DNA of 64,000 nucleotides, from the NCBI RefSeq assembly GCF_000455285.1, contig NZ_HG005286.1, positions 45,796 through 109,795 on the forward strand. Direction: 5' to 3'. This DNA comes from Candidatus Stoquefichus massiliensis AP9. Lineage in GTDB: Bacteria > Bacillota_I > Bacilli_A > Erysipelotrichales > Coprobacillaceae. A program made the position numbers and the translations under genes. The notes below the pieces were generated by a model that had not been told where the DNA came from, made no database searches, and was given only the letters and a program-made list of their open reading frames with translations. This document shows, piece after piece, positions 12,399 to 37,221 of the stretch (positions within the stretch are counted from its first letter, which is position 1; every line of letters starts with the position of its first letter).

Positions 12399-12401
12399 AT
12401 T

Positions 12402-13604: not shown

Positions 13605-14770
13605 TTATTATCACGTCGCTTTCTATGTTTATCATCATACATTTTTTGATCTGCAATCATAATATAATCTTCAACACTTTTTTCTTGATAAGAAATTCCA
13701 TAACTAAAAGAAATATGATTTTCTCCATTTTGCAAAGATGTTTGTAAACTTCTCATACGTTCTTTAATATAGTCTAATTTCTGATTAAAAAAGACCAATA
13801 AAAATTCATCACCACCAATACGTGCTACATAACCAATATCTAAAAAGCTTTCTATACATGCATTTGCAAATCGCATAAGAACTAAATCTCCAAAACTATG
13901 TCCATAAGTATCGTTCAGTATCTTTAAACCATCTAGATCTATAAAAACACAAATTAATTCATCACCTTTTTGTATTCTTTCTTCCATAATAGAACAAACC
14001 TCTCTTCTACTATAGGCTTTTGTCAGAGTATCATGTTCACTCAAATGTTTAAGCTTTTGTTTTTCAAAATACTGTTGAGCCATTAATATTTCACTTTGTT
14101 CGTAATCTTTTCTGATAATCTCACTTTTTATAAAAACATAATTATAATTAGACAAATAATACATTAAAAACAATATTAGTAAATCTCCACTCAATAATAA
14201 TAAGTACTCAATCTGTTGCATTTGATAATATTCTAATACAAATGCATCTATAATATTATAAAGAATACAAATCATCAAAAATCGTGTATAAATTATAACT
14301 TTAAAATGATCGTATCCATTATCCCATAAGAATTCAGGATAATATTTTAATAATATAAAGCAAACAAAATTATAAAATATAAATGATAAATTTAAAACAA
14401 GAATGCGTAAAAATGAATTATCTAAAGAATATGATAAATCTATACCTACCATTCCTAACAAACCAATACTTAACATTAATAAAGATATGTATAATAGATA
14501 AAGAAATATTGTTATATTTTTAATTGCAACATCATGATTATGATAAGGTACCACATTAAGTAACAACAAAACTAATAAACCAATCAAAAAAATTGGCAAT
14601 TGAATCATTAACCATGCGCATAAAGAAATCCATATAATACGTAATACAGAACAAACAGTATGATAAAAATAATATTTTTTATCATATATTTTTATATTTA
14701 TCATAATTTCATATAATTGAAATTCAGTTAATATACTTAATAGTATTAATGCTATTAATAGAAATATCAT
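13601..14770 (-). CDS. Membrane diguanylate cyclase (first of pair)
   Basis: This second GGDEF protein shares the plan of its neighbour: about seven hydrophobic helices in the first 220 residues, then a GGDEF domain with LTKAYSRREVC, VFIDLDGLKILNDTYGH and the active site ARIGGDEFLLVFF. The inhibitory RxxD is again absent. I set the start at 14770, where AAAGGTGG lies about ten bases upstream; the in-frame ATG at 14791 has no ribosome site. The product is 389 residues. The two cyclases look like a tandem duplication with divergent sensory halves. Signals unknown. Confidence 0.9.
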   Translation of the reverse strand: MIFLLIALILLSILTEFQLYEIMINIKIYDKKYYFYHTVCSVLRIIWISLCAWLMIQLPIFLIGLLVLLLLNVVPYHNHDVAIKNITIFLYLLYISLLMLSIGLLGMVGIDLSYSLDNSFLRILVLNLSFIFYNFVCFILLKYYPEFLWDNGYDHFKVIIYTRFLMICILYNIIDAFVLEYYQMQQIEYLLLLSGDLLILFLMYYLSNYNYVFIKSEIIRKDYEQSEILMAQQYFEKQKLKHLSEHDTLTKAYSRREVCSIMEERIQKGDELICVFIDLDGLKILNDTYGHSFGDLVLMRFANACIESFLDIGYVARIGGDEFLLVFFNQKLDYIKERMRSLQTSLQNGENHISFSYGISYQEKSVEDYIMIADQKMYDDKHRKRRDNK

Positions 14771-14873
14771 CTTTATCACACCACCTTTCATTTATTTTAT
14801 TATACTATAGATTCATATTATTGATAATAAATTACACTTTTTTTCAAAAATTAAAACAAATCACAGAAATATA

Positions 14874-15509
14874 TTATTTCTGTGACATATCATAATCATA
14901 TAAGAAGAAATTCATTGTTGCAGTAATTTTTCCAATTATAAATTGGTGAGACTTTTCTTGACATCTTTTCATACCCTGATGTTCATAAAACTGATAGTTA
15001 CAGCTTGTATCAGTGTAAAGGTAAAAATATTTGACATTATTAAGCTTCATATAATCTACCAAACGCGAAAACAATTCCTTGCCAATTCCTAGTCCCCTAC
15101 ACTCCTGGCTAATCGCAAAAAAAGATAATTCTCCTTGATAATCCATTTGACTTTCTCTTATAAGTTCTTGATCAATAATATTCACATTTTTAAATATAGA
15201 TGAAATTCTTCTTCCCTCTTGATCACATAATAACTTTAAAATAGAAACAATTTGTTTCCATCGATAACGAAGTGGACATCTATGTTTTTGAATATTCTTA
15301 CCCATAATAATTCCTATCGGACAATCTTTTATCGTAGCAACCTGTGTAAACGTTTGATTAGCTAAACAACTTGCTAAAAAGGCTTTAGCCATTTTTTTAG
15401 CAGTTTTTGGTCTACACATTTCATCATAGTGCCATGCTTCTCTAATAATATTTTCAATAAATATTTCATCACTTTTTTTAAACTCTCTAAATTTTATTTT
15501 TTCTTTCAT
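14874..15509 (-). CDS. GNAT-family N-acetyltransferase
   Basis: This acetyl-CoA-dependent acetyltransferase has its CoA-binding motif as CRGLGIGKELFSRLVDYM near residues 138-155, preceded by a strand (ELSFFAIS) and followed by the C-terminal NYQFYEHQGMKRC. The 211-residue length includes an insertion between the first helices. It is divergent from a MerR regulator with 80 bases between starts, so that regulator may control it. The acceptor is unknown; the MerR context hints at a drug or toxic small molecule, but that is inference. Confidence 0.85.
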   Translation of the reverse strand: MKEKIKFREFKKSDEIFIENIIREAWHYDEMCRPKTAKKMAKAFLASCLANQTFTQVATIKDCPIGIIMGKNIQKHRCPLRYRWKQIVSILKLLCDQEGRRISSIFKNVNIIDQELIRESQMDYQGELSFFAISQECRGLGIGKELFSRLVDYMKLNNVKYFYLYTDTSCNYQFYEHQGMKRCQEKSHQFIIGKITATMNFFLYDYDMSQK

Positions 15510-15557
15510 AAATCATTCGCTCCTTTTCTTTTCCTTGTGTATAATAAGTATAAAGTA

Positions 15558-15570
15558 TACAGTTACTGTA
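15558..15570. promoter_or_regulatory. Candidate MerR operator
   Basis: The 13-bp palindrome TACAGTTACTGTA lies 20 bases upstream of the MerR start, between it and TATA-like boxes at 15540-15555. MerR proteins bind short dyads between or next to promoter elements, so this is a reasonable site for autoregulation and for control of the divergent GNAT gene. Confidence 0.4.
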
Positions 15571-15589
15571 GAGTCAAGGAGGTTATTTT

Positions 15590-16387
15590 ATGTTTCATAA
15601 TTCCATTCCATTAACAACATCCCAATTTGCTAAACTACATCACGTTAATAAAAGAACATTGCATTATTATGATGAAATAGGGCTATTTTCTCCATTATAT
15701 AAAGGTGATAATAACTATCGATATTATGATTATTCGCAAAGTATTGAATTTGAATATATTCGTATGTTAAAAGATTTACATATGAGTTTAGAAGAAATTA
15801 AAGTATATTTAGAACATCCTCACATTGATGATTTTATAGAAATTGCTGATGAAAAGATTGAAACAATTAATCAAGAAATAAAAAAACTGAAGGCTACAAA
15901 GACTGCCTTACAAAAGCGAAAACAGATGTTAGAGATATGTCCAAATATAAAAGATGGTGATATTCTTATAAAAGAACATCACCAGGATTATGTATTTATA
16001 ACTCCAACGACTTTCCAGACAGAAAGCATAACAATTTTCAATCAATTAAAGGAATTACAAGACATTTCACCTTATCAAGAAAGTTTTGGAAGTTTTATAT
16101 CTGTAGATAAGATTATGAATCATGTTTATGATGACTATGATGGGTTATTTATACCAACAAAAGGTAAGAAACCAAATATAATGACAAGACCATCTGGACA
16201 ATATCTTTTCGCTTACTCAATTGGAGATTGGAAGAAGATACCACAATTATATGAAAAGATTCATCATTATATCAAAGTACATCATATTGAGCTCACTGGC
16301 TATGCTTATGAAATAGGACTCAATGAAATTGCAATTAAGCATATGAATGATTATATCACTGAAATTATGATTCCAATTAAGAAGTAA
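15590..16387 (+). CDS. MerR-family regulator with effector-binding C-terminus
   Basis: Residues 8-75 form the MerR winged helix (TSQFAKLHHVNKRTLHYYDEIGLF, NNYRYYDYSQ). Residues 85-125 form the dimer coiled coil. The C-terminal ~150 residues match a GyrI-like/AraC-effector-binding type domain by length and pattern (QYLFAYSIGDWKKIPQLYEKI). This is the BmrR-style plan of a multidrug-sensing activator. AGGAGG precedes the ATG. Partner gene: the divergent GNAT. Confidence 0.85.
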   Translation: MFHNSIPLTTSQFAKLHHVNKRTLHYYDEIGLFSPLYKGDNNYRYYDYSQSIEFEYIRMLKDLHMSLEEIKVYLEHPHIDDFIEIADEKIETINQEIKKLKATKTALQKRKQMLEICPNIKDGDILIKEHHQDYVFITPTTFQTESITIFNQLKELQDISPYQESFGSFISVDKIMNHVYDDYDGLFIPTKGKKPNIMTRPSGQYLFAYSIGDWKKIPQLYEKIHHYIKVHHIELTGYAYEIGLNEIAIKHMNDYITEIMIPIKK

Positions 16388-16400
16388 TCATAATAACCAT

Positions 16401-16754
16401 TTATTTTTCATGTTTCATTGTGTTATCTCTTTCTAAATACTCTACAAATGCAAATATAATAGAAATGACTGTAAGAACTGACACGATAAGTTCTGCCATA
16501 TTATTTGCATAATCTGTGTCTTCTGGAACAAATGCACCTAAAGCTAAAAAGTATATACACCATATAAGACCCAATGCAAGGAAAAGAAATGTTATATATT
16601 TAAGAAAAATTGACAAGATATTAATAATTTTTCGTACTCTAATCTGTTGTTTTAGTGAATATTCTTTTTTCACTATCATCTTAATACCACCACACAAAAA
16701 ACCAATGATGACTCCTACAGATGCTGCTCTACAAATTAAATAAAATAAGTTCAT
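16401..16754 (-). CDS. Small membrane protein, paralogue of the 35065-35403 gene
   Basis: This 117-residue protein has three or four hydrophobic segments. It is clearly paralogous to the gene at 35065-35403: the N-terminus (LICRAASVGVIIGFLCGG against MICRALSVGVIGGFLVGS) and especially the C-terminus (ANNMAELIVSVLTVISII in both) match. The near-identical last helix suggests a functional contact there. I do not recognise the family. It has a GGGGAG site and is convergent with the MerR gene, 13 bases apart. Confidence 0.75.
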   Translation of the reverse strand: MNLFYLICRAASVGVIIGFLCGGIKMIVKKEYSLKQQIRVRKIINILSIFLKYITFLFLALGLIWCIYFLALGAFVPEDTDYANNMAELIVSVLTVISIIFAFVEYLERDNTMKHEK

Positions 16755-16924
16755 ATGTACTCCCCTTTTATCTTGCTTTTAATTATTCCATTATATCAAG
16801 AAAAGTAAAAATAAGCACCATCGATTTCACTATTTCTCATAAATACGATATAACCACTTACTACAAATAAAATTCCCTGAATAACGTCTACTCATTAGGG
16901 GATTCATTATACTTATTAAGTGTT
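16755..16924. other. Intergenic, with possible fbp terminator
   Basis: This short gap holds an imperfect inverted repeat at about 16870-16910 (ATTCCCTGAAT against ATTAGGGGATT) downstream of the fructose-bisphosphatase gene on the minus strand. The 3' T-run is poor, so termination is uncertain. I see nothing else. Confidence 0.3.
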
Positions 16925-18649
16925 TTATTTTCTAAGTTTTAATAATTGTTTTAAATCATCTATCTGTTCTTGAATATGTTCACCATTTTTCGTATTTTTT
17001 ACCAGTTCCTGATGAGCTCGAGTATAAATGATTTGTGAGTCATACTCAGTATCACAATCAGTATATGCACCTTCATGAATATGATGTGTTTTTAAACGCA
17101 TGCCATGACTATTACTAATAAGAGTATACCCTGCGACTCCTGTCTTTTTTTGATTTTGTATACAAAATCCCCCATCAATAACAACTTGTTTCTTATGTTC
17201 TTGCAATGGTGATTCTCCATCTTTAACACGAACAGGTGTATGCCCATTAATAATCATACATTCCTCATCATATAAATGAAACTCATAAAGTATTTTCTCA
17301 CATATTTCTTTTTGATATATATAATGATAATAATAGTCTTTGGTTTCTGTTTCTTTATGATCTAAGACAATTCTTCTACCACATATTGGTGATTTATCAC
17401 CACACCACAAATACCATAAATAATCTACTGACTCTAGGTCTTTATATAGAAATGCTTTCTTAATATGTTCATTCACAAAATCAAAATAAGTTTTACCTTT
17501 TACTTTTTTTCCAAAACAAGTATGTTCATAAAATTGTCCATTTTCATCTAATGGAATACACCCATGTAATAATAGATTATGGTTCGTTCGTAAATATAAT
17601 GATCCTTTTTGATATAAGAATTGAATATGTTTTTTTAAACGTGAACTATTCATAAAACTCCTTTTTAAATCAAACAGAATTTTTATCTCTTCTTCACTTA
17701 ATAATTCTTCATGATTATATTTTAACCGATAATCCATATGAAGATGAGGATACTTATTGATAAGCTTTCTTTCTAATTTGATTTGTAAATCTAAACAATA
17801 CTTTTCCATTGCTAGAGCCTGTTTATCTGCTGCATATTTTTGCATTGCTGCAATCATTAACTGTCTTAATGGAATCCCATATCCTTTCTCTAATAAATCA
17901 GTATTATGATAATGGATACAGTTTTTAACAACAGTAATAATACAAGCACTTTGACCAATACATGCACCCATCCATAATATATCATGATTACCCCATTGAA
18001 TATCAACTCTTTGATATTTTATTAGAGCATCTATAATTTTATCTGGAGCTTTTCCACGATCATATATATCACCAAGTATATGTAATTGATCTATAGCAAA
18101 ATATTTTATCAGTTTTGTTAAAATATCAATAAAGTCATCTTGTTCACCTAACTCAATAATTGAATCTATAATCTGTAAATGATAAACATATTGTTGATCT
18201 AGTTCATCTAATTGAGCATGTAATAATTCATCAATGATATCAGCATATTCACTTTCAATATGTCTTCTGACTCTGGTTCTTGTATATTTTGATGTCACAT
18301 ATCTAGATAAACGAATTATTCTTAGGATTTGTTGTTGATACCATATTTTTTCATGCGACTTTTTCAATTCTTTTTGAGGATAATATATTAAATAACAAAA
18401 GTCATTGATTTCTTGATAACTCATCTCATTATGAAATAAGAATATAGTTTTTTCTTTTATAACACCTGAACAATTATTCATTAAATGTTTAAAAGCATCA
18501 TATTCCCCATGTAAATCAGATATATAATGTTCTGTTCCTTTAGGCAAATTTAAAATAGCTTTTAAATGAATAATCTCACGACAGATTGATTGAATTGTTG
18601 GATATTCTTTAGCTAGAATATCAAAATATTTTTGATTTATATTTCTCAT
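16925..18649 (-). CDS. fbp: Fructose-1,6-bisphosphatase, class III
   Basis: This hydrolyses fructose-1,6-bisphosphate to fructose-6-phosphate in gluconeogenesis. Class III enzymes are specific to Firmicutes and belong to the metallophosphatase superfamily. Metal-binding motifs are visible: YISDLHGEYDAF (near residue 42), LHILGDIYDRG (near 190) and WGNHDILWMG (near 220), with a late INGHTPVR (near 465). At 574 residues it is somewhat shorter than the 640-670 typical of Bacillus. It lies after the hexitol operon, behind a terminator, on the same strand. Read-through would link it to that pathway, whose kinase makes fructose-1,6-bisphosphate. Confidence 0.93.
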   Translation of the reverse strand: MRNINQKYFDILAKEYPTIQSICREIIHLKAILNLPKGTEHYISDLHGEYDAFKHLMNNCSGVIKEKTIFLFHNEMSYQEINDFCYLIYYPQKELKKSHEKIWYQQQILRIIRLSRYVTSKYTRTRVRRHIESEYADIIDELLHAQLDELDQQYVYHLQIIDSIIELGEQDDFIDILTKLIKYFAIDQLHILGDIYDRGKAPDKIIDALIKYQRVDIQWGNHDILWMGACIGQSACIITVVKNCIHYHNTDLLEKGYGIPLRQLMIAAMQKYAADKQALAMEKYCLDLQIKLERKLINKYPHLHMDYRLKYNHEELLSEEEIKILFDLKRSFMNSSRLKKHIQFLYQKGSLYLRTNHNLLLHGCIPLDENGQFYEHTCFGKKVKGKTYFDFVNEHIKKAFLYKDLESVDYLWYLWCGDKSPICGRRIVLDHKETETKDYYYHYIYQKEICEKILYEFHLYDEECMIINGHTPVRVKDGESPLQEHKKQVVIDGGFCIQNQKKTGVAGYTLISNSHGMRLKTHHIHEGAYTDCDTEYDSQIIYTRAHQELVKNTKNGEHIQEQIDDLKQLLKLRK

Positions 18650-18668
18650 ACTATCACCTACTAAAAGA

Positions 18669-18688
18669 GGCTTATGTTACCATAAGCC
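18669..18688 (-). terminator. Terminator of the hexitol operon
   Basis: The perfect 8-bp stem GGCTTATG/CATAAGCC with a four-base loop is followed on the minus strand by TCTTTTA. It lies between the dehydrogenase stop and the fbp start. The T-run is short, so some read-through into fbp is plausible. Confidence 0.65.
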
Positions 18689-18696
18689 CATGTATT

Positions 18697-19947
18697 TTAT
18701 TGATAATAATTTAATAAGATTTTTTCTGCTTCACTATTCCATAAACCATTTGTTTTTTGAATAGATTCAGCTAATTGCTTAAACAAATCATTTGTTTTAC
18801 CTAATTCTTCGAAATCATCAATAGCTGTTAATGGCATATTAATATGTGTATAAATAAGTTTTTTTCCACCTGGAATCTGTGGTAAATTCTTTGTGGTATC
18901 AACAACTGCATCTAATCCTCCAATATGTGTAATCATAACAGCTGTTTGAATTAATCCTTGTGCATCTTTATCAATAGCTTCTTTCATGTCATCAATTGTT
19001 CCACCTGTACTTCCTAAAATTCTATGTCTAGAATAATGACAGTTATAAAGATTCATTGATGCTGAGAATTCTGAATCAGTAGGTCCTGCAAATAAGTTTA
19101 AGTTACCATCGTATGCTAATAACTGATCACCCATTTCAGATACACCTTTTAATGGAACATAAACAAAGACATCATCATAACCTTGACCATCAGTTAAGTC
19201 CATTAATTCTTTGACTTGATCATCCATCTTTGCTGTATTCACATAATGTAGTTCTACTCCATGTTTTGCAGCCTCTGCTTCTGAAATCACTTCTCTAGCA
19301 CGAGCAATTTTAGCATCATCTATATCAGTCACAACAACTCTTTTAGGTTTGTTTTCATATGTTAATGAATAACTTACAGCGCCTAATCCCATTGGACCAC
19401 AGCCACCTAAAATAATAATATTTCCATTCATTTTTGTTCCCATAACATGGTCATAGCAACCTGGTACAGTATGATAATGTGTATGGAATCCAGAAATGAC
19501 ACAACACATTGGTTCAGCAACTGAAGCTGCAAAGTAACTATCTCCTTCAAATGTCCATAAACATCCTGCTTCAATGATATCATTAGGGAAAATACAATAT
19601 TCACTGTCTCCTCCACACCATTTGTATGAATAACCTGGTGATTCCATTTGTCCTGGAATAGCTGGCTGTTGTGCAAATTTTTGTCCTGGTTTGAACTGAT
19701 CTATCCATTTTTTACCTACTTTAACAATATCTCCAGCAAATTCATGACCTATAATAATAGGATTATCATAAACATCATTTGGAACTCTTTTATGGTTCGC
19801 TCCTTGTTTAACAGTCTTGTATGTTGACATACAAATACTATCAGAAACTACTTTTACTAAAATTTCATCATCTTTAATTTCTGGTAATTCAAATTCATCT
19901 AATCTTATATCATCAACGCCATATAAGCGTACTGCTCTTGTTTTCAT
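18697..19947 (-). CDS. Zn-dependent sugar(-phosphate) dehydrogenase, sorbose-1-phosphate reductase type
   Basis: This medium-chain dehydrogenase has a catalytic zinc site (Cys in DSICMSTYK near residue 39, GHEFAG near residue 67) and a Rossmann motif (GGCGPMGLGAVSY near residue 182). Size (416) and the long N-terminal half match the SorE-like L-sorbose-1-phosphate reductases better than alcohol dehydrogenases. In this operon it probably interconverts the hexitol phosphate made by the PTS and a ketose phosphate. Because a 1-phosphofructokinase follows in the pathway, fructose-1-phosphate is a likely product. No MtlD-type mannitol-1-phosphate dehydrogenase is present. It follows the kinase gene by 14 bases. 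Confidence 0.8.
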   Translation of the reverse strand: MKTRAVRLYGVDDIRLDEFELPEIKDDEILVKVVSDSICMSTYKTVKQGANHKRVPNDVYDNPIIIGHEFAGDIVKVGKKWIDQFKPGQKFAQQPAIPGQMESPGYSYKWCGGDSEYCIFPNDIIEAGCLWTFEGDSYFAASVAEPMCCVISGFHTHYHTVPGCYDHVMGTKMNGNIIILGGCGPMGLGAVSYSLTYENKPKRVVVTDIDDAKIARAREVISEAEAAKHGVELHYVNTAKMDDQVKELMDLTDGQGYDDVFVYVPLKGVSEMGDQLLAYDGNLNLFAGPTDSEFSASMNLYNCHYSRHRILGSTGGTIDDMKEAIDKDAQGLIQTAVMITHIGGLDAVVDTTKNLPQIPGGKKLIYTHINMPLTAIDDFEELGKTNDLFKQLAESIQKTNGLWNSEAEKILLNYYQ

Positions 19948-19961
19948 ATTTTTAATCTCCT

Positions 19962-20894
19962 CTACTTAAATTCAATATTGACTTCATTGATTAATTTCTC
20001 AACCATGGCTAAACATGGTGCCTTAGTTCCTTTTGTCATAACAGCGCCAGCCGAAGTAGCTACTGCTAATTTAATCAGTCGTACAAGTTCATAATTCTGT
20101 TCTATTCCATAAGCTAATGCCCCAACCATTGAATCACCTGCACCGACTGCAGAATGAGCAATAATTTCTAGTCCTGGTATACGTGCAACTTCATCATGAG
20201 TTATAAAAATAGCTCCTTTCGATCCTAACGAAATTACAACTGTTTCTATTCCCTTGTACAAAAGTTTTTTAGCATTTTCAATCAAATCAAGTTCACTTAT
20301 ATTTTCATCCAACCCAAAGTATTTACATAATTCATACTTATTAGGTTTGACTAAGTGAGGGCCGGCTTCAATACCATGAGTGAATAAATCACCATCAGCA
20401 TCTAATATAACTTTAGCCCCTTTATCTTTAAGCAAAGTAATCAATTCTTTATAGATATCTCTTGGAACACCTAATGGAACACTTCCTGCTAATACAACAA
20501 TATCACCAGCAAATGTCATTGCTAACAAATCACTTTTAAATTTCTGCAAATCATCAACATTAATTTCATCTCCTACTTCATTCAATTCAGTAAGATTCAT
20601 ATTTTCATCTAAAACCTTTAAATTCATACGAGTATTCCCTTTAACATGCATAAACTTATATTCAAGTCCCATATTATCAAGTTTTCTCTCAATCCATTCA
20701 CCATTATCCCCAGCTATAAAGCCAGTACAAATAGATTGTCCTCCTAATTCTTTAATTGCTTTAGAAACATTAATACCTTTCCCACCAACATCAAGCATCA
20801 CATGGTCTAAACGATTTAACCCATTACATACCATTTGTTTCACCTGTGCTGTTTTATCAATTGCAGGATTTAAAGTCACTGTTATAATCATCAT
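19962..20894 (-). CDS. fruK: 1-phosphofructokinase (PfkB family)
   Basis: This phosphorylates fructose-1-phosphate to fructose-1,6-bisphosphate. Seen are the FruK/LacC start ITVTLNPAIDKT, the sugar-binding GGKGINVS near residues 38-45, and the ATP/anion-hole motif SAVGAGDSMVGA with catalytic Asp near residue 252. LacC (tagatose-6-phosphate kinase) shares this plan and cannot be excluded; context (hexitol PTS, FBPase) favours FruK. The start overlaps the preceding stop (TAATG). GGAG lies four bases before the first ATG and seven before a second adjacent one. Confidence 0.82.
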   Translation of the reverse strand: MMIITVTLNPAIDKTAQVKQMVCNGLNRLDHVMLDVGGKGINVSKAIKELGGQSICTGFIAGDNGEWIERKLDNMGLEYKFMHVKGNTRMNLKVLDENMNLTELNEVGDEINVDDLQKFKSDLLAMTFAGDIVVLAGSVPLGVPRDIYKELITLLKDKGAKVILDADGDLFTHGIEAGPHLVKPNKYELCKYFGLDENISELDLIENAKKLLYKGIETVVISLGSKGAIFITHDEVARIPGLEIIAHSAVGAGDSMVGALAYGIEQNYELVRLIKLAVATSAGAVMTKGTKAPCLAMVEKLINEVNIEFK

Positions 20895-25249: not shown

Positions 25250-27019
25250 CTAGTTAACTTTCTTTTTATAGTTATATATCCCAATCAGCAATCCTACAAA
25301 AGCAGTTCCACTTAATATTATCCATTGATTGAATTTATTATTATCTCCTGTCTTTGGTATATCACTATTTTCTTGATTCTTTTTATTAATTTCGATTGGT
25401 GCTTTCTTATATCCACAAATTTCACATTCCTCATGCTTTAAACCTTTTTCGGTTATGGTTGCTTCTTTATCAACAACCCATTTGTAAGTATGAGGTGCTA
25501 TACTTAATTTTTCAGCACAAATATTACATTCTTGCCAGTGATTGTTTTCATCTAATTTCCATGCACCTGTATCACATTGATGTCCCAATGCTGGTATAAC
25601 CGTTGGTTGATCAATATGGATTTCACCATATTCATCAGAAAACAAATCGTCACATATTTCACATTTCCAATATTCTTCATGACCCACCTCTGTGCATGTT
25701 GCAGGTTTTTTTTCAACTTTTACTATACGATGTCTTAAAGCCTGCACTTCTCTTACGTCTGTTGCATTGTCACCACGTTCACAAACTGCAGTTTCTGTTC
25801 CGTTTTCTGTACAAGATACGTTATTATCACTCACATAATTAACAAACTTGTGAACTATATTTGGTTCATTTCCTTGATCTACTTTAATAGCATCTATCTC
25901 ATTACAAATCACATGAATAATTCCATCGTTTATAATTTTGGCACTACCATTTTTAGTAACTTTAACACCACTTGCTAATGTGAGTTCTACATTTGGCATG
26001 ATATTTAAATTTCTTCCGTCTGAAACTTGAAGATCAGTTTCCAATGTATAATTAGTTGCGTAAATCATATCTTTAGAATTTTTTAAAATATAACCTTGTA
26101 AATCAGCATTATTAGCTAAATTGAGAATTAAATTATCAGTACCCACACGCAAAATTTCAATATTCTTTGGTGTTATAAACTGAACATTTCCTACAAGTTC
26201 AGCTTGAGATGCATAAATTGGCATATCAGTATGAATGATAGAGTTTTCAATATAAAGTTTTCCATTATTTTGAGTCATTTGTTTTCCTTTAATGTATCCT
26301 GAATATCCAACACTATTTCCATAAGTCGTTATATCACTATTAATGAATTTCATAATAGGATCTGAACTATTTGAACTAATCCCTGTTACAAATAGTCCTC
26401 CACCACCTGCCTTACCAGGATAAACAATAATACGACTATCATAAACTTCAATCGATGCTCCTGCATATATAGGATTAAACGGATCACTAACTTCATTTGT
26501 TAATTTTAGTTCAACCTCTGCTCCATTTTTAGCAATAAAACTACTATTAATAACAAAGCCTTGTTTCCCGCTTCCATATAATCTTGTACCATCTACAATC
26601 AACGTATTTAAATTACCTGGACTCATACATATTGCATCTTTAATTGTCAAAGATCCAGCCCCAGTAAGTGTTATAGAATCAGTTAAAACAACACCATATG
26701 TATTTGGTTGCGAAAAAACACTTCCACATTTATCAAATACATTATCACCAACCAAATCCACTGTGATTTTGCCATTTGGTAATTTAACAGCTGAACCTCC
26801 TCCTTGTGTACCATGGATAGTTAAATCTGTTAATGTTAATTTTTTAGCCTTTGCATCCCATGTATATCCTGGTCCATCTGCATTCGTATCAGAATAATTT
26901 GTTAAATCAATTTCAGAGTCTAAACTGTTAGATGCAAATACAGGTATTGGCATGAGCATAAGACCTAAACAAAGTATTACGGCAAGCAACTGATTAAAAT
27001 AAACAATTTTTCTTTTCAT
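25250..27019 (-). CDS. Sortase-anchored beta-helix surface protein
   Basis: The 589-residue protein has a signal peptide (cleavage likely after VFA near residue 29) and a repeat-rich beta-helix-like region over residues ~35-390 (runs such as LTLTDLTIHG, ITLTGAGSLTIKDA). It then has three CxxC-containing modules (YWKCEIC, WQECNIC, HEECEIC) over residues 420-540, and a wall-anchor tail: IPKTG near residue 553, hydrophobic helix, KKK. It is therefore exported and linked to the cell wall by sortase. It is divergent from a LytTR response regulator/kinase pair that probably controls it. A relic of a paralogue lies at 36215-36352. Ligand unknown. Confidence 0.85.
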   Translation of the reverse strand: MKRKIVYFNQLLAVILCLGLMLMPIPVFASNSLDSEIDLTNYSDTNADGPGYTWDAKAKKLTLTDLTIHGTQGGGSAVKLPNGKITVDLVGDNVFDKCGSVFSQPNTYGVVLTDSITLTGAGSLTIKDAICMSPGNLNTLIVDGTRLYGSGKQGFVINSSFIAKNGAEVELKLTNEVSDPFNPIYAGASIEVYDSRIIVYPGKAGGGGLFVTGISSNSSDPIMKFINSDITTYGNSVGYSGYIKGKQMTQNNGKLYIENSIIHTDMPIYASQAELVGNVQFITPKNIEILRVGTDNLILNLANNADLQGYILKNSKDMIYATNYTLETDLQVSDGRNLNIMPNVELTLASGVKVTKNGSAKIINDGIIHVICNEIDAIKVDQGNEPNIVHKFVNYVSDNNVSCTENGTETAVCERGDNATDVREVQALRHRIVKVEKKPATCTEVGHEEYWKCEICDDLFSDEYGEIHIDQPTVIPALGHQCDTGAWKLDENNHWQECNICAEKLSIAPHTYKWVVDKEATITEKGLKHEECEICGYKKAPIEINKKNQENSDIPKTGDNNKFNQWIILSGTAFVGLLIGIYNYKKKVN

Positions 27020-27093
27020 AACTCTTCCCTCCTTTTATCGTTTTTATTTAATGTTCATGGCATTGAAATAATTTAAAAGAGAGGGTGGTATGT

Positions 27094-27137
27094 TTTGTAT
27101 GACCTATACTATAGGTCATACAAAGGGATCCCTTTGT
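27094..27137. repeat. Two overlapping perfect palindromes upstream of the surface gene
   Basis: 27094-27124 is a perfect inverted repeat with 15-bp arms and a single central C (TTTGTATGACCTATA and its complement). It overlaps a second perfect palindrome at 27120-27137 centred on GGGATCCC. The pair lies 75-118 bases upstream of the surface-protein start. No T-run follows on either strand, so it is not an ordinary terminator. It could be an operator, a leader RNA hairpin or a recombination site. Confidence 0.7.
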
Positions 27138-27219
27138 TCAATGTTTGACATTAATTTGAAAACGATTTATTCCTTAAGAATATTTTGACAACTATCAGTC
27201 ACATAATCAATAGACTTGG

Positions 27220-27288
27220 CTTAAACCGTTCTTTTATGTCTTAAGCCGTTATTTTTATGAGTTATTTTAGAAATATTCATGTTATAAT
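27220..27288 (+). promoter_or_regulatory. LytTR-like tandem operator and promoter
   Basis: Two direct repeats with a 20-base period, CTTAAACCGTT at 27220 and CTTAAGCCGTT at 27240, read on the minus strand as AACGGNTTAAG. They resemble the paired direct repeats bound by AgrA/ComE-type LytTR regulators. A TATAAT stands at 27283-27288, with the repeats just upstream of its -35 position. This fits activation of the response-regulator operon by its own product. The opposite orientation could also serve the surface gene. Confidence 0.55.
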
Positions 27289-27317
27289 AAATTATATAAA
27301 TGGAAGGAGAGATACCC

Positions 27318-28034
27318 ATGCTCATTATAATTTGTGATGACATTATATCTGATAGAGAAATCTTGCATAATTATTGTAATCACTATGCAAAAGAGAATAG
27401 AGTCCCTATGACTGTCATGGAATTTGAAAATGCTGGGACACTCCTTCAATGTCAAGATGCTCGATCAGCTGATGTCATGCTTCTAGATATTTATATGGAT
27501 GGAATGTCTGGAATAGATGCAGCACATATATTACGCCAGAAAGGTTATCGTGGTGCATTGATATTGACAACAACAAGTCAAGATTATTATGCAGATGGCT
27601 ATGATGTAGAAGCTATACATTATCTTTTAAAACCAATATCATATCAGGCTTTTTGCGAATCTATGCGTAGAGTCTATGAACGCATGAACACGATAACCAA
27701 AAAAATAAGAGTAACTTCAACCCGTAATACTTTTGATATTGATATTTCAGGTATTCAATATATTGAGGTCTATGGGCATAAAACATTTATACATACGATT
27801 AAAGGTGATATAAAAGTTAATCATTCTCTTGTTTCTTTAGAAGAACGTCTTGGAGGTGATCCATTCCTTAGATGTTATCGCTATTATATTATTAATATGG
27901 ATTTTGTAAAAAGGATGAACGATGATAGTTTTCTGATGAAAGACAATAAAGAAATTCCACTTTCACGAGATGGTCGTACTGCCTTGAAAAATCGTTATAT
28001 GTCTTATATATTTAAACGTATGGAGGCAAAATAA
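27318..28034 (+). CDS. LytTR-family response regulator (AgrA-like)
   Basis: This is a two-component response regulator. The receiver domain (residues ~1-120) has the acidic pair in IICDDI, the phosphorylated Asp in VMLLDIYMDG (near residue 52) and the Lys in HYLLKPIS (near residue 98). The C-terminal LytTR DNA-binding domain (residues ~130-236) includes IQYIEVYGHKTFIH and FLRCYRYYIINMDFV. Start 27318 is chosen because GGAG lies eight bases upstream; the ATG at 27300 is itself part of the ribosome-site region. It overlaps the kinase start (TAATG). A fragment of a paralogue is at 36358-36433. Confidence 0.9.
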   Translation: MLIIICDDIISDREILHNYCNHYAKENRVPMTVMEFENAGTLLQCQDARSADVMLLDIYMDGMSGIDAAHILRQKGYRGALILTTTSQDYYADGYDVEAIHYLLKPISYQAFCESMRRVYERMNTITKKIRVTSTRNTFDIDISGIQYIEVYGHKTFIHTIKGDIKVNHSLVSLEERLGGDPFLRCYRYYIINMDFVKRMNDDSFLMKDNKEIPLSRDGRTALKNRYMSYIFKRMEAK

Positions 28035-29392
28035 TGGAATCAATATATCCAGAATACATAATTTCTGTCATTGAAGCTACTATGACTATGTTTTTCTGTC
28101 TCTACATAACACGTTATCAACTCAATAAAAAAAGATCTACTCTTCTTATTATTCTAATAAGTCTAGCAATTGTTGGCACTGCAGTAAGCATGTTTATTTC
28201 AATATTATTGGATAGTATATTATCAATTACTTTAGATTTCAGTACATTATCTCTGCCACTATGGCTTTTGATTGGTTATTTTCTATTACGTTGGGCAACT
28301 GGTGAACCCTCAACTGGTATACTTCTCATTTTGTTATTATCAATACAAGTCCTTCATTTATGTCGAAGTACAACGCTTTTAATTTATGGATTATTTTTTC
28401 CATCATTAGCTCAAGGCTCTTTTTGTTGGGTTGATATTTTAGGTTTTGGTATTCCTTCTATCTTATTTACTCAATTATTAGCTATTTTCTTTTCTAAACT
28501 ATATAATAAGATTCGAGTATTGAACATTAAAAAATATATTCGCTTATGGATAATTCCTTTGTTTTTTGTTCTTCTTTATTTGCTTCAAACCAATTTTTAT
28601 GCAATTGATGACTTTGTTTTAAGTAATGTTTTTCGTATCACGATTATCTTATGCGCCTTTATGACCTATTCGCAAATGATTGCTGCTGTTTTTCAGGCTT
28701 CAGAGACAGCCAAAGAAGCTGAGATGCATATTCAACTTGCTCATCAACTAGATTTGCAACAAGCACAAATGGAAGACATTGAAAATCACGCCAAAGAAAT
28801 GAAACGTATTCGTCATGATTATCGGCAGCATGTATTGGTATTACGTGGCATGTTAGAAAAGGGCGCTATTGAAGAAGCCCTTCAATATCTTACCCATTAT
28901 GAAAACACCCTTATTCAAGTCACTCAACCTCCATTATGTGACAATCTTACTGTTGATACACTATGTCGCCATTATGAAAAACTAGCACAACAAGCGAATA
29001 TTCATGTTTCTATGATTATCTCACTCCCTAAAAAATCGAATATTGCGGATAGTGATTTTTCTATTATTTTAGGAAATCTTTGGGAGAATGCTGTAACTGC
29101 AGCTATCAATTCAAAATATTCAAAACGTTTTATTAAACTACAGATACAAACACAGCAAGAACAAGTTCTTATTCATATGGAGAATAGTTTTGATGGTATT
29201 ATTTATGAAAAAGATAAACAATTTTTATCTAGTAAACCTCATCGAAATAAATCCGAAGGTGTAGGTATTACAAGTATTCAAGCTATAGCAACAAAATATG
29301 GTGGTTGGACTCATTTCTCTTATACATCAGATACTTTTATTGCTTCTATACTTTTATATTTTCAAGATAAAAACTCCTCCATACAAGACTGA
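28034..29392 (+). CDS. GHKL-type sensor histidine kinase (AgrC-like)
   Basis: This membrane kinase pairs with the LytTR regulator. Six or so hydrophobic helices fill residues ~10-215, and a short coiled coil follows. The phospho-His is in MKRIRHDYRQHVLVLRGML (near residues 256-274). The ATPase core has the N box NLWENAVTAA (near 350) and the G box GVGITSIQAIATKYGG (near 412). The plan matches AgrC/ComD peptide-sensing kinases. No agrD/agrB-like peptide pair is recognisable nearby, so the signal is unknown; the short unit just downstream is one place to look. Confidence 0.9.
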   Translation: MESIYPEYIISVIEATMTMFFCLYITRYQLNKKRSTLLIILISLAIVGTAVSMFISILLDSILSITLDFSTLSLPLWLLIGYFLLRWATGEPSTGILLILLLSIQVLHLCRSTTLLIYGLFFPSLAQGSFCWVDILGFGIPSILFTQLLAIFFSKLYNKIRVLNIKKYIRLWIIPLFFVLLYLLQTNFYAIDDFVLSNVFRITIILCAFMTYSQMIAAVFQASETAKEAEMHIQLAHQLDLQQAQMEDIENHAKEMKRIRHDYRQHVLVLRGMLEKGAIEEALQYLTHYENTLIQVTQPPLCDNLTVDTLCRHYEKLAQQANIHVSMIISLPKKSNIADSDFSIILGNLWENAVTAAINSKYSKRFIKLQIQTQQEQVLIHMENSFDGIIYEKDKQFLSSKPHRNKSEGVGITSIQAIATKYGGWTHFSYTSDTFIASILLYFQDKNSSIQD

Positions 29393-29917: not shown

Positions 29918-30222
29918 ATTTTCATTAAAAATTCATAATGCAATAATCCAAAGGGTATGAATTTTGTTGTCATTAACCATAATCATAGCAACTAGTGGTA
30001 ATTTTTTATTTGAGTTATACCTAACTTCTGATAAGACACCTTGAATCATGTTGTCAGGAATAATTTAACAATAAAATGATTTAATATCACTTATTTCAAT
30101 CTTTAGTCTTTGCTTTATACTTGATGTTTTTTATTTCCTTCACTTATTTATATTTCTTCAATAGATATCAATACAAAAAATGTGTATAATAAACAATGTA
30201 TTATTTAAAGAGGAGGTTTTGC

Positions 30223-31482
30223 ATGATACTTGAACAAATAAATCCAGATCTACTTACTTTAGCTAAAGAATCTGATACAGTTTTACATGATATTTACGAA
30301 AAAATTGATTCCATTTGTCTAATAAATTCTAATCGAATCTTATCTGCTTTTATTGAAAATAAAGTTTCTTACTCAGATTTTAGTGATATCAATGGTTATG
30401 GAAACTATGATGAAGGAAGAAATAAGATTGAAAAGATTTTTGCAACTGTCCTTGGTTGTCAGGATGCTTTAGTACGGCCTCAAATTATGAGTGGAACAAA
30501 TGCTTTATACATCACTCTTTCTGCCTTGTTAAAATATGGTGATACAATGATTTCATTGTCTGGTGCTCCTTACGATTCACTTCAAGAAATGATTGGCATA
30601 AGCGGAAATTCAAGTCAGTCACTAAAAGCTGCTGGAGTGAAGTATGAACAAATTGAATTAATTAATGATGATTTTGATGATCAAATGATTATTGAACGCT
30701 TAAAAGAAAAAAATATTAAATTAGTGGAAATTCAAAGATCTAGGGGTTATTCGCATCGTAAGTCGTTATCAATAGCAAAGATTGAAAGGATTATTAAAAA
30801 GATTCGTGAAGTCAATGAAAAAGTCATTATTATGGTAGATAATTGTTATGGCGAGTTAGTAGAAACCAAGGAACCAGGGCATGTTGGTGCTGATATTGTT
30901 GTTGGATCTTTAATGAAGAATCTTGGTGGTGGGATTGCTCCAACTGGAGGATATATAGCCGGTAATCAAGATTTAGTTTATATGGTAGCTGAAAGATTAA
31001 CAGCTCCAGGAATTGGAAAAGATTTAGGAGCAAATTTCAATTTAAACAATGCTTTTTTTAAAGGAATTTTTATGGCCCCTAATGCTGTAAAAAACGCGTT
31101 AAAGACAGCTATATTTACATCTTATATGTTAGAAAAACTAGAATATTCTAATGTATCTCCTCGCTATGATGAACCACGAACTGACATTATTCAAACATTA
31201 GAACTTAAATCTAAAGAGAATTTAGTAAGCTTTACTCAAGGCATTCAACAAACTAGCCCGATTGATTCATTTGTCCATGTTTTACCGGCTCCAATGCCAG
31301 GATATCCTTTTGATGAAGTTATGGCTGCTGGTAGTTTTACTCAAGGCAGTACAATCGAATTAAGTGCTGATGCCCCAGTTATTGAACCATATACCTTATA
31401 TATGCAGGGTGGTTTAACATTTGAGTATGGAAAATTATCTATTTTATTAGCATTATCAAATATGAAAAGGAAGTTGGATTAG
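30223..31482 (+). CDS. Methionine gamma-lyase-like PLP protein (aluminium-resistance family)
   Basis: This fold-type I PLP enzyme belongs to the group annotated as methionine gamma-lyase family/aluminium resistance protein (YnbB-like). The PLP-Lys is expected in VVGSLMKNLGGGIAPTGGY (near residue 237), with an Asp in IIMVDNCYGEL (near residue 206) for the ring nitrogen. Length (419) is normal. Start 30223 has AGGAGG eight bases upstream; the in-frame ATG at 30196 has none. Real substrates of this family are poorly defined. Its 3' end overlaps the convergent SDR gene by four bases within a shared terminator. Confidence 0.85.
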   Translation: MILEQINPDLLTLAKESDTVLHDIYEKIDSICLINSNRILSAFIENKVSYSDFSDINGYGNYDEGRNKIEKIFATVLGCQDALVRPQIMSGTNALYITLSALLKYGDTMISLSGAPYDSLQEMIGISGNSSQSLKAAGVKYEQIELINDDFDDQMIIERLKEKNIKLVEIQRSRGYSHRKSLSIAKIERIIKKIREVNEKVIIMVDNCYGELVETKEPGHVGADIVVGSLMKNLGGGIAPTGGYIAGNQDLVYMVAERLTAPGIGKDLGANFNLNNAFFKGIFMAPNAVKNALKTAIFTSYMLEKLEYSNVSPRYDEPRTDIIQTLELKSKENLVSFTQGIQQTSPIDSFVHVLPAPMPGYPFDEVMAAGSFTQGSTIELSADAPVIEPYTLYMQGGLTFEYGKLSILLALSNMKRKLD

Positions 31483-31494
31483 CAACTTCCTTTT
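31465..31494. terminator. Bidirectional terminator between convergent genes
   Basis: The 11-bp stem AAAAGGAAGTT/AACTTCCTTTT has an eight-base loop that contains the overlapping stop codons of the PLP-enzyme gene (plus) and the SDR gene (minus). A and T runs on either side let it work both ways. Confidence 0.75.
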
Positions 31495-32225
31495 TGTCCA
31501 CCATCAATTCGAATGACAGTATTATTAATAAAATCAGCTTCTTTGCTTACTAAAAACTTTACTAAATAAGCAACTTCTTGAGGATTTCCATAGCGATTAA
31601 CCATGATTTTTTCAACTTCTTCTTTTAAAAATTGCTCATCATAACCATCCAGTTCACTTTCCGTACCAATGAAACCTGGAGCAATGCAATTGACATTAAC
31701 AAAAGGTGCAAATTCAAAGGCAAGATTATGTGTCATAGAAATCAACGCCGCTTTTGATGCATCATAATCAATACACATTGGATAATAGGTATTGATGCCA
31801 TTAGTCGAAGCGATATTAATAATTTTTCCATATTCTTGATCAATCATATGACGATAAACACGTTTACTACAATTGAATGCTCCTACTACATTGACATCTA
31901 ATGTTTTTCTAAATTCTTCAGCATTTTTTAAATGGAATAAATTTGATAAATCTATAGCTGCGTTATTAATCAGAATATCAACACCACCAAGTTTTTCCTC
32001 AATCAAAGATACCATTTCATCTACTTTATCTTCCTTAGAAACATCTCCTGCAATAGCCAAACAACGTACTTCATAATTATCAACAATCATATCTTTTAAT
32101 GCCTCAGCTTCTTTTTGAGATGTTAAATAATTAATGACAATATCATATCCTTGTTTTGCTAATTCTAAAGCAATAGCTTTGCCAATTCCTCTAGCCCCTC
32201 CAGTAATCAATACAATTTTATTCAT
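31479..32225 (-). CDS. SDR-family oxidoreductase (FabG-like)
   Basis: This short-chain dehydrogenase has the cofactor motif GGARGIGKAIA (residues 7-17), NNAAI (near residue 87), catalytic Ser in INIASTNG (near 138) and Tyr/Lys in YDASKAA (near 153). Length (248) is standard. FabG-like in pattern, but it lies outside any fatty-acid cluster, so acyl-ACP reduction is only one possibility. It follows EF-P by 18 bases on the same strand. Confidence 0.88.
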   Translation of the reverse strand: MNKIVLITGGARGIGKAIALELAKQGYDIVINYLTSQKEAEALKDMIVDNYEVRCLAIAGDVSKEDKVDEMVSLIEEKLGGVDILINNAAIDLSNLFHLKNAEEFRKTLDVNVVGAFNCSKRVYRHMIDQEYGKIINIASTNGINTYYPMCIDYDASKAALISMTHNLAFEFAPFVNVNCIAPGFIGTESELDGYDEQFLKEEVEKIMVNRYGNPQEVAYLVKFLVSKEADFINNTVIRIDGGQKGSC

Positions 32226-32243
32226 AATTTTAAAAAGAGCTTA

Positions 32244-32801
32244 TTAAGCTCTTCCAGCATACTTTCCATCAGTTGTAAACACAACGATTTTTTCTCCAGT
32301 ATTAATGAACTGAGGAACACGCAATGTTAACCCTGTATCAGTAACGGCATCTTTTGTTTGGTTAGATGGTGCACCCTTGATGGCAGGATCGGTTTCAGCC
32401 ACCGTTAATTCTACTTTTTCAGGAACAGATACTGATAACAATAATCCATCAAAGAACATTAATGAAACTGTTGAACCTTCAATAATATAATATTTATTAT
32501 CCCCTACTTGATCCTCAGCTAATTCATATGTTTCATATGTTTCTAGATCCATAAAATAAAAAGTAGAATCTGCTTTATATGAATATTGCGCATCTTTTCT
32601 TGAAATATTTGCTGCTTCAAACTTAGTCGATGCATTAAAGTTTCTCTCTTGAATCGATCCAGTTTTTAAGTTTCTCATCTTTGTTTTTAAGATGGCTGCT
32701 CCTTTCCCTGGTTTTACATGTTGAAAATCCATAACTTGACAAGGATCACCATCAATAATCAAAGTTAATCCTGTTTTAAAATCACCTGCTAATATAGCCA
32801 T
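32244..32801 (-). CDS. efp: Translation elongation factor P
   Basis: EF-P relieves ribosome stalling at polyproline. The three-domain, 185-residue protein is of standard length once the start is set at 32801 (MAILAGDFKTG), which has GAGGAG upstream; the longer ORF adds eight spurious residues. The domain-I loop carries KPGKG with the tip Lys that is modified in many species. No EpmA/EpmB or YmfI-type modifier was recognised in the window, apart from the SDR gene directly downstream. YmfI, needed for EF-P modification in Bacillus subtilis, is an SDR, so that link is possible. Confidence 0.95.
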   Translation of the reverse strand: MAILAGDFKTGLTLIIDGDPCQVMDFQHVKPGKGAAILKTKMRNLKTGSIQERNFNASTKFEAANISRKDAQYSYKADSTFYFMDLETYETYELAEDQVGDNKYYIIEGSTVSLMFFDGLLLSVSVPEKVELTVAETDPAIKGAPSNQTKDAVTDTGLTLRVPQFINTGEKIVVFTTDGKYAGRA

Positions 32802-32875
32802 ATTTTCACTCCTCATCTTGCACATATTAATACATACTTTATTCTATCAATTTTAACATCATTACTCAAGACACA

Positions 32876-34102
32876 TTACGATATTTGTGATTGTTTCTCT
32901 GTTGTATGTTCCTTAATATACCTATTCCACTTGATATAACCATATGTTGTATTCGTAAAATAGCCTAATTTTAGAACTAATAAAACATATTGTCCCGAAA
33001 TAATATTGATAATAGCTTCAAGAAATGCACAAATATACCATGCAATCCACTGTTCTTGCAACCTAAAGAAAATAAATAATCCATTTGCAATCCCTACCGC
33101 TGAAGCGCAAGCATCAATATAGATAATAAATGTTTCTAATAATTCATTGTTGTAGAAATCCGTTGCAATATTTAAACCACTAATAAGATATCCAATGACA
33201 AACGTCCAAATAATGATTCCGATGATAACTAAAACTTCCTGATATCCTTTTAGTTTTCTGACTACTGTTAATTCATTTTCTTCATCATCCTTGTGTTTTG
33301 ACCAATTTATGTAACTTATAATATCAATTGGCAGCCAGAAAAATAATGTTGTTGCCATTGTCGCAAATCGATACATTAATACTATGCATGTCACAATTTC
33401 AACAATTTCAACTAATACCGAAACAAGGAAATTATATCGTGATTGTTTAGAAATCAATAATTCACAAAGAATATTTAAGAATGTATCCAATAAATAGAGC
33501 AGCATAATGATAATTCCATTGACCCCATTAGCACTTTCTTCTGGGAAAAATACGGAAAAAATCGTTGCTAGAACCATAATTGAAATAAACCATGATTTTT
33601 CATATGTTGTAAATTGTTTTGCAAATAACATCATAATTAAAATAGATAACATCAAGATTAAAGAAGCAATTCCAAAGTTAAATAATGGAGCTAATTCATT
33701 AGCTCTTACTTGTTTGTAGGAATACTGCACTTCTTGATTGTTTATATTTTGGTGATCAAAATATAATTTTGTACCGTTTTCTGTTTCATATTCATATGCT
33801 GTCATTGTCATATCATCTAATTTAACATAATCTTCATATGAATAAGATATGATTAACTGTTTATCACCATTTATATAGGTAACATCACAAATCGTATTAT
33901 CTTCACTATAGTCTTCTAAGCTCGTATCTCTTGTCATTTGGATACTTTGTTTAAACTGCATATTTTCAACCTTAGCATTAATATCAAACAAGCCATATCC
34001 AATTGATATAATCGAAGCAATACATAATCCTATTGAAAATATGACTTCTATCATTCTTAACCTTTTTTTAGGTTCTATGTTTATTTTTAAAAATTTAATC
34101 AT
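32876..34102 (-). CDS. PnuC-family transporter with an N-terminal ectodomain
   Basis: The C-terminal ~230 residues (about 180-400) resemble PnuC nicotinamide riboside-type transporters: WLPIDIISYINW near residue 255 and a late segment with RLQEQWIAWYICAFLEAI and TTYGYIKWNRY near residues 345-395. Ahead of this is an extra region: one hydrophobic helix (~17-40), about 85 polar residues likely outside the cell (~42-135), and two more helices. Normal PnuC is 200-260 residues; this is 408. Cargo may be nicotinamide riboside, another vitamin or a nucleoside. The PnuC match is by eye. Confidence 0.6.
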   Translation of the reverse strand: MIKFLKINIEPKKRLRMIEVIFSIGLCIASIISIGYGLFDINAKVENMQFKQSIQMTRDTSLEDYSEDNTICDVTYINGDKQLIISYSYEDYVKLDDMTMTAYEYETENGTKLYFDHQNINNQEVQYSYKQVRANELAPLFNFGIASLILMLSILIMMLFAKQFTTYEKSWFISIMVLATIFSVFFPEESANGVNGIIIMLLYLLDTFLNILCELLISKQSRYNFLVSVLVEIVEIVTCIVLMYRFATMATTLFFWLPIDIISYINWSKHKDDEENELTVVRKLKGYQEVLVIIGIIIWTFVIGYLISGLNIATDFYNNELLETFIIYIDACASAVGIANGLFIFFRLQEQWIAWYICAFLEAIINIISGQYVLLVLKLGYFTNTTYGYIKWNRYIKEHTTEKQSQIS

Positions 34103-34221
34103 ACCAAACCTTCTTCCCCCTATATATTTACATTTTTAATACATTTACAACAACCTACCTTTGGGCATTGCATATAAATCTCCTTTAGACATTTGCAATA
34201 GGATATTTGAAAACATTGTGA

Positions 34222-35963: not shown

Positions 35964-36214
35964 AATTTCCTCCATTTTATAATCATAATTTTATTATAAA
36001 ATGAATCACAAATATATTTTGTCAGAAAATATAAATTAATATTATGATATAGTTCTATCTTATTATCGCTAAAACAATTAACCTATTATAGGGAACTACC
36101 CTTACATTTTCCTTTATACTCTTTATAACTATTAGATCCTTTATCTTTAAAATCCATCAATTTTATTGACTCTCTATTATATTTATATATAATCATCACA
36201 ATCTAGTTTTGGCC

Positions 36215-36352
36215 GACTTCCTTGATTGACTTCGATTGCATCTGTTTCATTACAATTCACATTAATAGTTCCCTTATTTATAATTTTTTCATTAGAATCA
36301 TTAGTAACTTTGACGCTACCAGATCCCGTTAATGATAAAACCAATAACATAT
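36215..36352 (-). pseudogene. Relic of a second beta-helix surface-protein gene
   Basis: The minus strand reads GSGSVKVTNDSNE then KIINKGTINVNCNETDAI and EVNQGS. The intact surface protein has ASGVKVTKNGSA then KIINDGIIHVICNEIDAI and KVDQGN (around 25860-25990). Only about 45 codons remain, with no start or anchor. It lies six bases from the response-regulator relic, in the same relative orientation as the intact locus. The wider 35976-36495 gap holds nothing else I can support. Confidence 0.82.
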
Positions 36353-36357
36353 CATGG

Positions 36358-36464
36358 TCTATGCGTAGAGCATATAAGCGAATGAATAAGATTCCTAAAA
36401 AATAAAAATAACTTCAAATCGTGATACTTTTGCTGCCTCTATTCTTTTGTATTTGTAAGAGAAA
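36358..36464 (+). pseudogene. Fused relic of a LytTR regulator and its kinase
   Basis: 36358-36433 aligns with 27660-27735 of the response-regulator gene (CTATGCGTAGAG, then ATAACTTCAA and ATACTTTTG shared). From the ATACTTTT onward it aligns with the end of the kinase gene (29330-29373): DTFAASILLYL followed by a stop, against DTFIASILLYFQ. Thus about 1.6 kb was lost between two ATACTTTT sites. Neither part can be functional. Confidence 0.82.
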
Positions 36465-36490
36465 GATGAGATTGATTAATCAATCCCATC
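36465..36490 (-). terminator. Hairpin at the end of the XRE-SUKH operon
   Basis: A 13-bp-arm palindrome (GATGAGATTGATT and AATCAATCCCATC, one mismatch that is a G-T pair on the minus strand) lies five bases past the SUKH stop codon. It is followed by TTTCTCTT on the minus strand. It is probably the operon terminator, although the T-run is imperfect. Confidence 0.6.
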
Positions 36491-36495
36491 TATAT

Positions 36496-37221
36496 TTATA
36501 GTTTCATTTGCTTGTACTCTTTCCAACGATCTTCCCAGTAAGATTCACAAAAATCCATATTGGATAGTTTTTCAAAATTCAATTTAACTTGATTATTTTT
36601 TTCAAATTCCTCTTCCAAAGTTCCTATAAAGTACCATTCTAATAAAGTTTCAAAATCCGGTGCTGCACATCTTCCATGAAGTAATCCATCATCTTCTAAA
36701 TAACACTTTTGCCAATCAAATTCTTCATGATCAAACCAGACAATAGACCATGTTGATTGATCACTATAATCCACTTCTTGTTTAGCTAATTCTAAATCGA
36801 TACAAAGCGGTCCCCATCCAGCACCCCAATCACCAATAGGAATAAGATGTAAATATGAACCTTGTGGTGCTTCACAACAGTCAACTGCAATCTCTCTAAA
36901 TTCATCTATTCTTGCACTTAATGATGAGATATCTTTTATTGCATCAAGTATCAGCCATAGGATGTCAGGTTCTTCTTCAAATTCCTGATAAACAATACCA
37001 TTGATTTCAAGTGAATTTTGACTTACAGTAGAACAAGGTAATTGATATGTTGTAAGAAATGCTTTGTAAAGGTTAGGTAACTGGATATTATATTTTTTCT
37101 CTAAATCATTTAAATCTTCTTCTGTTATATGAGCGCATTTTAACTCTCCTTTTATCCATCCTCGTTCCATGAGTTTTAAAAATGCTTTTTCTATAAATTC
37201 TTGTTCTAGTGATTTATTCAT
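36496..37221 (-). CDS. SMI1/KNR4 (SUKH) family protein
   Basis: This 241-residue soluble protein has the SUKH pattern: ITEEDLNDLEKKYNIQLPNLYKAFL at residues ~29-53, then HLIPIGDWGAGWGPLCIDL near residues 125-143 and a C-terminal FETLLEWYF. SUKH proteins are often immunity proteins of polymorphic toxins, but also occur as house-keeping scaffolds. No toxin gene is found beside it. It follows an XRE gene by 16 bases and probably shares its promoter. Confidence 0.82.
   Translation of the reverse strand: MNKSLEQEFIEKAFLKLMERGWIKGELKCAHITEEDLNDLEKKYNIQLPNLYKAFLTTYQLPCSTVSQNSLEINGIVYQEFEEEPDILWLILDAIKDISSLSARIDEFREIAVDCCEAPQGSYLHLIPIGDWGAGWGPLCIDLELAKQEVDYSDQSTWSIVWFDHEEFDWQKCYLEDDGLLHGRCAAPDFETLLEWYFIGTLEEEFEKNNQVKLNFEKLSNMDFCESYWEDRWKEYKQMKL

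What the first reader, a model, noticed from the sequence alone, without database searches (positions are those of the whole stretch)
36215..36464. Collapsed relic of a second surface-protein/LytTR/kinase locus
Within 250 bases, a minus-strand fragment of a surface-protein paralogue (KIINKGTINVNCNETDAI against KIINDGIIHVICNEIDAI) sits six bases from a plus-strand fragment of a response regulator. That fragment switches, at a shared ATACTTTT, into the end of a kinase (DTFAASILLYL against DTFIASILLYFQ). The intact locus at 25250-29392 has the same order and orientation. At least two deletions, one at a short direct repeat, turned about 4 kb into 250 bases. So this module was once present twice, and one copy was lost.
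Basis: seen in the sequence. Interest (0 to 1): 0.62.

Follow-up and report, generated by a model that had tools for sequence, protein, structure and literature searches.

The report
Pseudogene remnant of a duplicated module
About 260 bases between two ordinary genes are the worn-down remains of a second copy of a nearby surface-protein and sensor-regulator gene cluster; this is ordinary bacterial gene decay, although it does show that the cluster probably once existed twice.

Summary
Window 36203-36464 consists of three collinear pieces of the intact locus at 25250-29392. They are a minus-strand surface-protein piece (36203-about 36337, matching 25855-25989), a plus-strand LytTR response-regulator piece (36338-about 36434, matching 27630-27737) and the end of the GHKL kinase (36424-36464, matching 29331-29371). 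DNA identity is 75-84%, and 0 of 2000 shuffles reach the observed score for any piece. The regulator/kinase join lies at an 8-base word, ATACTTTT, found in both parent sequences. About 1.64 kb and 1.60 kb are missing inside, plus 605 bases of the surface gene's 3' end. The regulator piece carries a frameshift and stops. No other stretch of the 3.5-Mb genome is comparably close. Differences fall almost evenly over codon positions (17/13/23), which fits decay, but fast-evolving genes of the genus look similar. "Remnant of a second module copy, shrunk by deletions" is the best reading. Two things could not be shown: whether the copy arose by duplication or separate acquisition, and that a full second locus ever stood here, because the only held sister species lacks the module and is not syntenic at this site. 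It is an ordinary pseudogene remnant of low interest.

The parts
25250..27019 (-). Intact parent gene 1: surface protein of 589 aa with an apparent signal peptide, an IPKTG-type anchor and a C-terminal repeat region like that of a solved bacterial IgA protease
   Evidence: ORF; signal peptide and anchor by reading; weak EF2685/EF0750 sortase-anchor match below cut-off; phmmer hit 9qa6_A, E 9e-39, residues 429-546
27300..28034 (+). Intact parent gene 2: LytTR response regulator
   Evidence: Pfam Response_reg E 2.6e-13 and LytTR E 1.6e-17
28034..29392 (+). Intact parent gene 3: GHKL (AgrC-like class) sensor kinase
   Evidence: Pfam HATPase_c_5 E 1.3e-15
36203..36337 (-). Relic piece 1: surface-protein fragment, matches 25855-25989; still open over 46 codons (LSLTGSGSVKVTNDSNEKIINKGTINVNCNETDAIEVNQGSRPKLD)
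   Evidence: 75% over the core 117 bases, E 1.7e-19, 0 of 2000 shuffles; protein-level hit E 6e-7; limits from two-parent alignment
36338..36434 (+). Relic piece 2: response-regulator fragment, matches 27630-27737, with a 10-base loss (7+3), a 1-base frameshift deletion and stops
   Evidence: E 9e-15, 0 of 2000 shuffles; frame analysis; limits
36424..36431 (+). ATACTTTT, word shared by relic, regulator (27729-27736) and kinase (29331-29338): likely deletion junction
   Evidence: sequence and alignments
36424..36464 (+). Relic piece 3: end of the kinase (DTFAASILLYL then stop), matches 29331-29371
   Evidence: 34 of 42 bases identical (36423-36464), E 2.6e-5, 0 of 2000 shuffles
36464..36491 (-). 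Terminator-like hairpin of the neighbouring SUKH gene, at the right edge of the relic; not part of it
   Evidence: 1 found vs 0.1 expected in shuffles

Best explanation
36203-36464 is a non-functional remnant of a second copy of the divergent surface-protein / LytTR-regulator / GHKL-kinase module whose intact copy lies 7-11 kb to the left. After it lost its function, deletions removed nearly all of its roughly 4.1 kb. One deletion of about 1.6 kb (matching 27738-29341) probably ran between two copies of the 8-base word ATACTTTT, by replication slippage or short-homology joining. Another of about 1.64 kb removed the surface gene's 5' part, the intergenic control region and the regulator's first 110 codons. 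Smaller losses, a frameshift and point changes followed. It makes no product. Shown: homology, order, orientation, disrupted frames, the shared word at one junction, no other close copy in the genome. Inferred: the former full length, the order of events, the slippage mechanism, and that the loss was neutral.
For: Three collinear, individually significant pieces and clean parent limits. Regulator fragment with a frameshift and stops. The nearest other regulator in the genome is only 27% identical in protein and the nearest other kinase 28%. In the DNA search of the whole genome the only substantial non-self matches of this region are those in the intact locus; the rest are matches of about 28 bases. 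Differences over codon positions are 17/13/23 of 53 (third-position share 0.43, not different from 1/3, p = 0.14), against 0.65-0.78 for four conserved genes compared between this genome and its sister species.
Against: No relative with an intact second locus at this site was found. The sister species has no surface-protein match and no close regulator match, and its SUKH and lipoprotein homologues lie on different contigs. The codon-position evenness is weak evidence, because the fast-evolving SUKH (0.47) and lipoprotein (0.38) genes show the same low third-position share. The surface/regulator junction shows no clear short repeat.
Confidence: 0.87

Rival explanations
1. Short pieces of the intact module were copied into this place during break repair (template switching), so a full second locus never existed here.
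For: The pieces are short (about 135, 97 and 41 bases), the donor is only 7-11 kb away, and no full second locus is known in relatives.
Against: All three pieces keep donor order and orientation, including the divergent strand arrangement. A copy-in would have to jump 1.6 kb forward twice in the same direction. Deletion at a short direct repeat needs no such coincidence.
Confidence: 0.07
2. The relic is the remains of a separately acquired homologous module (xenologue), or the original copy, with the present intact locus acquired later; it did not arise by duplication within this genome. (A variant of the best explanation about the origin of the second copy, so the two confidences are not exclusive.)
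For: About 21% of aligned bases differ, similar to the 75-78% identity of typical shared stretches between this genome and its sister species. Both the intact locus and the relic lie outside the stretch 29999-34149 that is shared with the sister.
Against: Nothing excludes it, but no outside source is known: the closest regulator homologues found in other species are only about 33% identical in protein. This concerns the origin of the second copy, not its decay.
Confidence: 0.4
3. The fragment is kept for a function, for example as a donor of sequence for the surface gene by gene conversion, or as a small RNA or peptide.
For: The surface piece still has an open frame of 46 codons.
Against: At 75% identity there is no long identical stretch for conversion. 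No Rfam match, promoter-like sites at chance level, only one fragment in the genome, and differences nearly even over codon positions.
Confidence: 0.03

Closest known systems
Bacterial pseudogene remnants shortened by deletional bias (discussed e.g. in PMC5447742, PMC2916853; only abstracts seen here)
   Same: Disrupted frames, loss of most of the gene by small and large deletions, drift of what is left.
   Different: It spans three genes of a divergent module rather than one gene, so the order of fragments identifies the parent locus.
LytTR response regulator / GHKL sensor kinase pairs of Firmicutes (AgrA/AgrC-like class)
   Same: The parent genes carry Response_reg + LytTR and HATPase_c_5 domains.
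   Different: No AgrB or AgrD homologue was noticed among the ORFs of the locus (by reading, not by a profile search); the partner is a divergent anchored surface protein. The relic itself encodes no working domain.

Membership tests
Pseudogene (decayed gene copy) | Significant homology to an intact gene | tested here: met
   E 1.7e-19, 9e-15, 2.6e-5; 0 of 2000 shuffles for each piece
Pseudogene (decayed gene copy) | Frame disrupted or truncated so that no working product can be made | tested here: met
   Regulator piece frameshifted with stops; all three genes truncated
Pseudogene (decayed gene copy) | Relaxed constraint: changes even over codon positions | tested here: inconclusive
   17/13/23, p = 0.14 against evenness; differs from four conserved genes, but not from the fast-evolving SUKH and lipoprotein genes
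Remnant of a full second module at this site | Collinearity with the parent locus, order and orientation | tested here: met
Remnant of a full second module at this site | Intact second locus at the same site in a relative | tested here: inconclusive
   Only one congener is held; it has no surface-protein match, no close regulator match, and different neighbours
Deletion between short direct repeats | The same short word in both parent sequences at the junction, one copy left | tested here: met
   ATACTTTT at 27729-27736, 29331-29338 and 36424-36431; met for this junction only, not for the surface/regulator junction

The most novel reading that the evidence does not exclude
The module belongs to a set of surface-protein/LytTR/kinase loci that this lineage repeatedly gains and discards, and the fragment is kept as a sequence donor that diversifies the surviving surface gene.
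Probability: 0.02. Interest if true: 0.5.

Novelty: new member of a known kind. Interest (0 to 1): 0.14.

Why it matters
It is a readable case of a three-gene regulatory module shrinking to about 6% of its length, with one deletion junction still visible. It shows that the surface-protein/LytTR/kinase module was probably present twice, which is useful for annotating this locus and for tracing its history in the genus. It says nothing new about mechanism.

Tried and rejected
Searches for an intact second copy: 60 relatives by regulator protein at E <= 1e-40, 60 relatives by relic DNA, 43 family members and 392 phylum members by surface protein, viral contigs by regulator, SUKH and surface protein and by an exact relic word, and plasmids by regulator protein. 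None found one. Surface-protein hits elsewhere mostly fall in the C-terminal repeat region (from about residue 380) and do not mark the module. The 33 loci fetched by regulator similarity hold a kinase homologue near the regulator in most cases but no surface-protein match, so the three-gene module was seen only in this genome. Rfam gave nothing. The codon-position test was tried as proof of decay and turned out inconclusive.

Full report
Observation. blastn of window 36100-36500 against the whole window returns, after itself, three stretches of one locus in one order and orientation: 36203-36319 with 25855-25971 (117 bases, 75%, E 1.7e-19), 36336-36432 with 27628-27735 (E 9e-15) and 36423-36464 with 29330-29371 (81%, E 2.6e-5). 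None of 2000 dinucleotide-preserving shuffles of each piece reached the observed alignment score. In a search of the whole 3.5-Mb genome with the 501 bases around the relic, the first two are the strongest non-self matches, and the remaining ones are matches of about 28 bases.

Parents. The intact locus holds a 589-aa surface protein on the minus strand, a regulator with Response_reg and LytTR domains and a kinase with a GHKL HATPase_c_5 domain. The surface protein ends in an IPKTG-type anchor with a sub-threshold match to a sortase-anchor family. Its C-terminal repeats match a solved bacterial IgA protease, PDB 9qa6, at E 9e-39. That match lies in the repeat region only, so it is not evidence that the surface protein is a protease.

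Anatomy of the relic. A two-parent alignment places the limits at 36203-36337 (surface gene, 25855-25989), 36338-36434 (regulator, 27630-27737) and 36435-36464 (kinase, 29342-29371), so the first two pieces abut. The kinase match reaches back to 36424 through ATACTTTT, which also belongs to the regulator match; this 8-base word is at 27729-27736 and 29331-29338 in the intact locus. Missing relative to the intact locus are 1640 bases (25990-27629), 1604 bases (27738-29341), 605 bases of the surface gene's 3' end and 21 bases at the kinase's end. About ten bases and a further single base are missing inside the regulator piece, and the single-base loss shifts the frame. The surface piece still reads open in the right frame. 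The intergenic control region of the module is entirely absent from the relic.

Decay. Over 256 aligned bases 53 differ, 17, 13 and 23 at codon positions 1, 2 and 3 (sum of the three pieces). The third-position share of 0.43 is lower than in four conserved genes compared between this genome and its sister species (0.65-0.78; Fisher p 0.046 to 8e-5). It is about the same as in the fast-evolving SUKH (0.47) and lipoprotein (0.38) genes. This fits divergence largely without constraint but does not prove it.

Other copies and relatives. The closest other regulator in the genome is 27% identical and the closest other kinase 28%, so the relic is by far the nearest relative of the intact module found. 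The one held congener (G001) has no regulator match at E <= 1e-40 and no surface-protein match. Its SUKH homologue (61%) is on contig C6 and its lipoprotein homologue (44%) on C5, so the site does not exist there as such. The stretch between the two copies, window 29999-34149, is shared with G001 at 92.8%, and synteny breaks at both its ends. Neither copy lies in shared DNA. Among 33 loci of other species fetched by regulator similarity (22-34% identity), most have a kinase homologue near it but none has a match to the surface protein.

Interpretation. Deletion of a once complete second module is the simplest reading: order, orientation, frame damage and a short repeat at one junction all agree. 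Copying-in of three short pieces in donor order is possible but needs more coincidences. Whether the second copy was a duplicate or a separate acquisition cannot be told here.

Noticed in passing
window 29999-34149: A 4.15-kb block (aminotransferase-like gene, SDR, EF-P, membrane protein) is 92.8% identical to the congener G001 (C4:699723-703878). The longer matches of window 1-20000 to G001 are 64-88%, and synteny breaks at both ends of the block. It may be a recently exchanged segment.
   Followed up: partly
window 25250-27019 (protein residues 429-546): The C-terminal repeats of the intact surface protein match those of a solved bacterial IgA protease (PDB 9qa6), E 9e-39. The match covers the repeat region only.
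   Followed up: partly
window 27220-27255: Direct repeat CTTAAACCGTT / CTTAAGCCGTT about 20 bases apart in the intergenic region before the LytTR regulator gene; a candidate LytTR binding site, seen by eye and not tested.
   Followed up: no
L072 and L073 (G001:C4:681500-721499): In the congener the shared block is flanked by what look like defence-type genes (large SIR2-like and helicase/AAA-like proteins) and an IS3-type transposase; named by eye from the translations, not searched.
   Followed up: no
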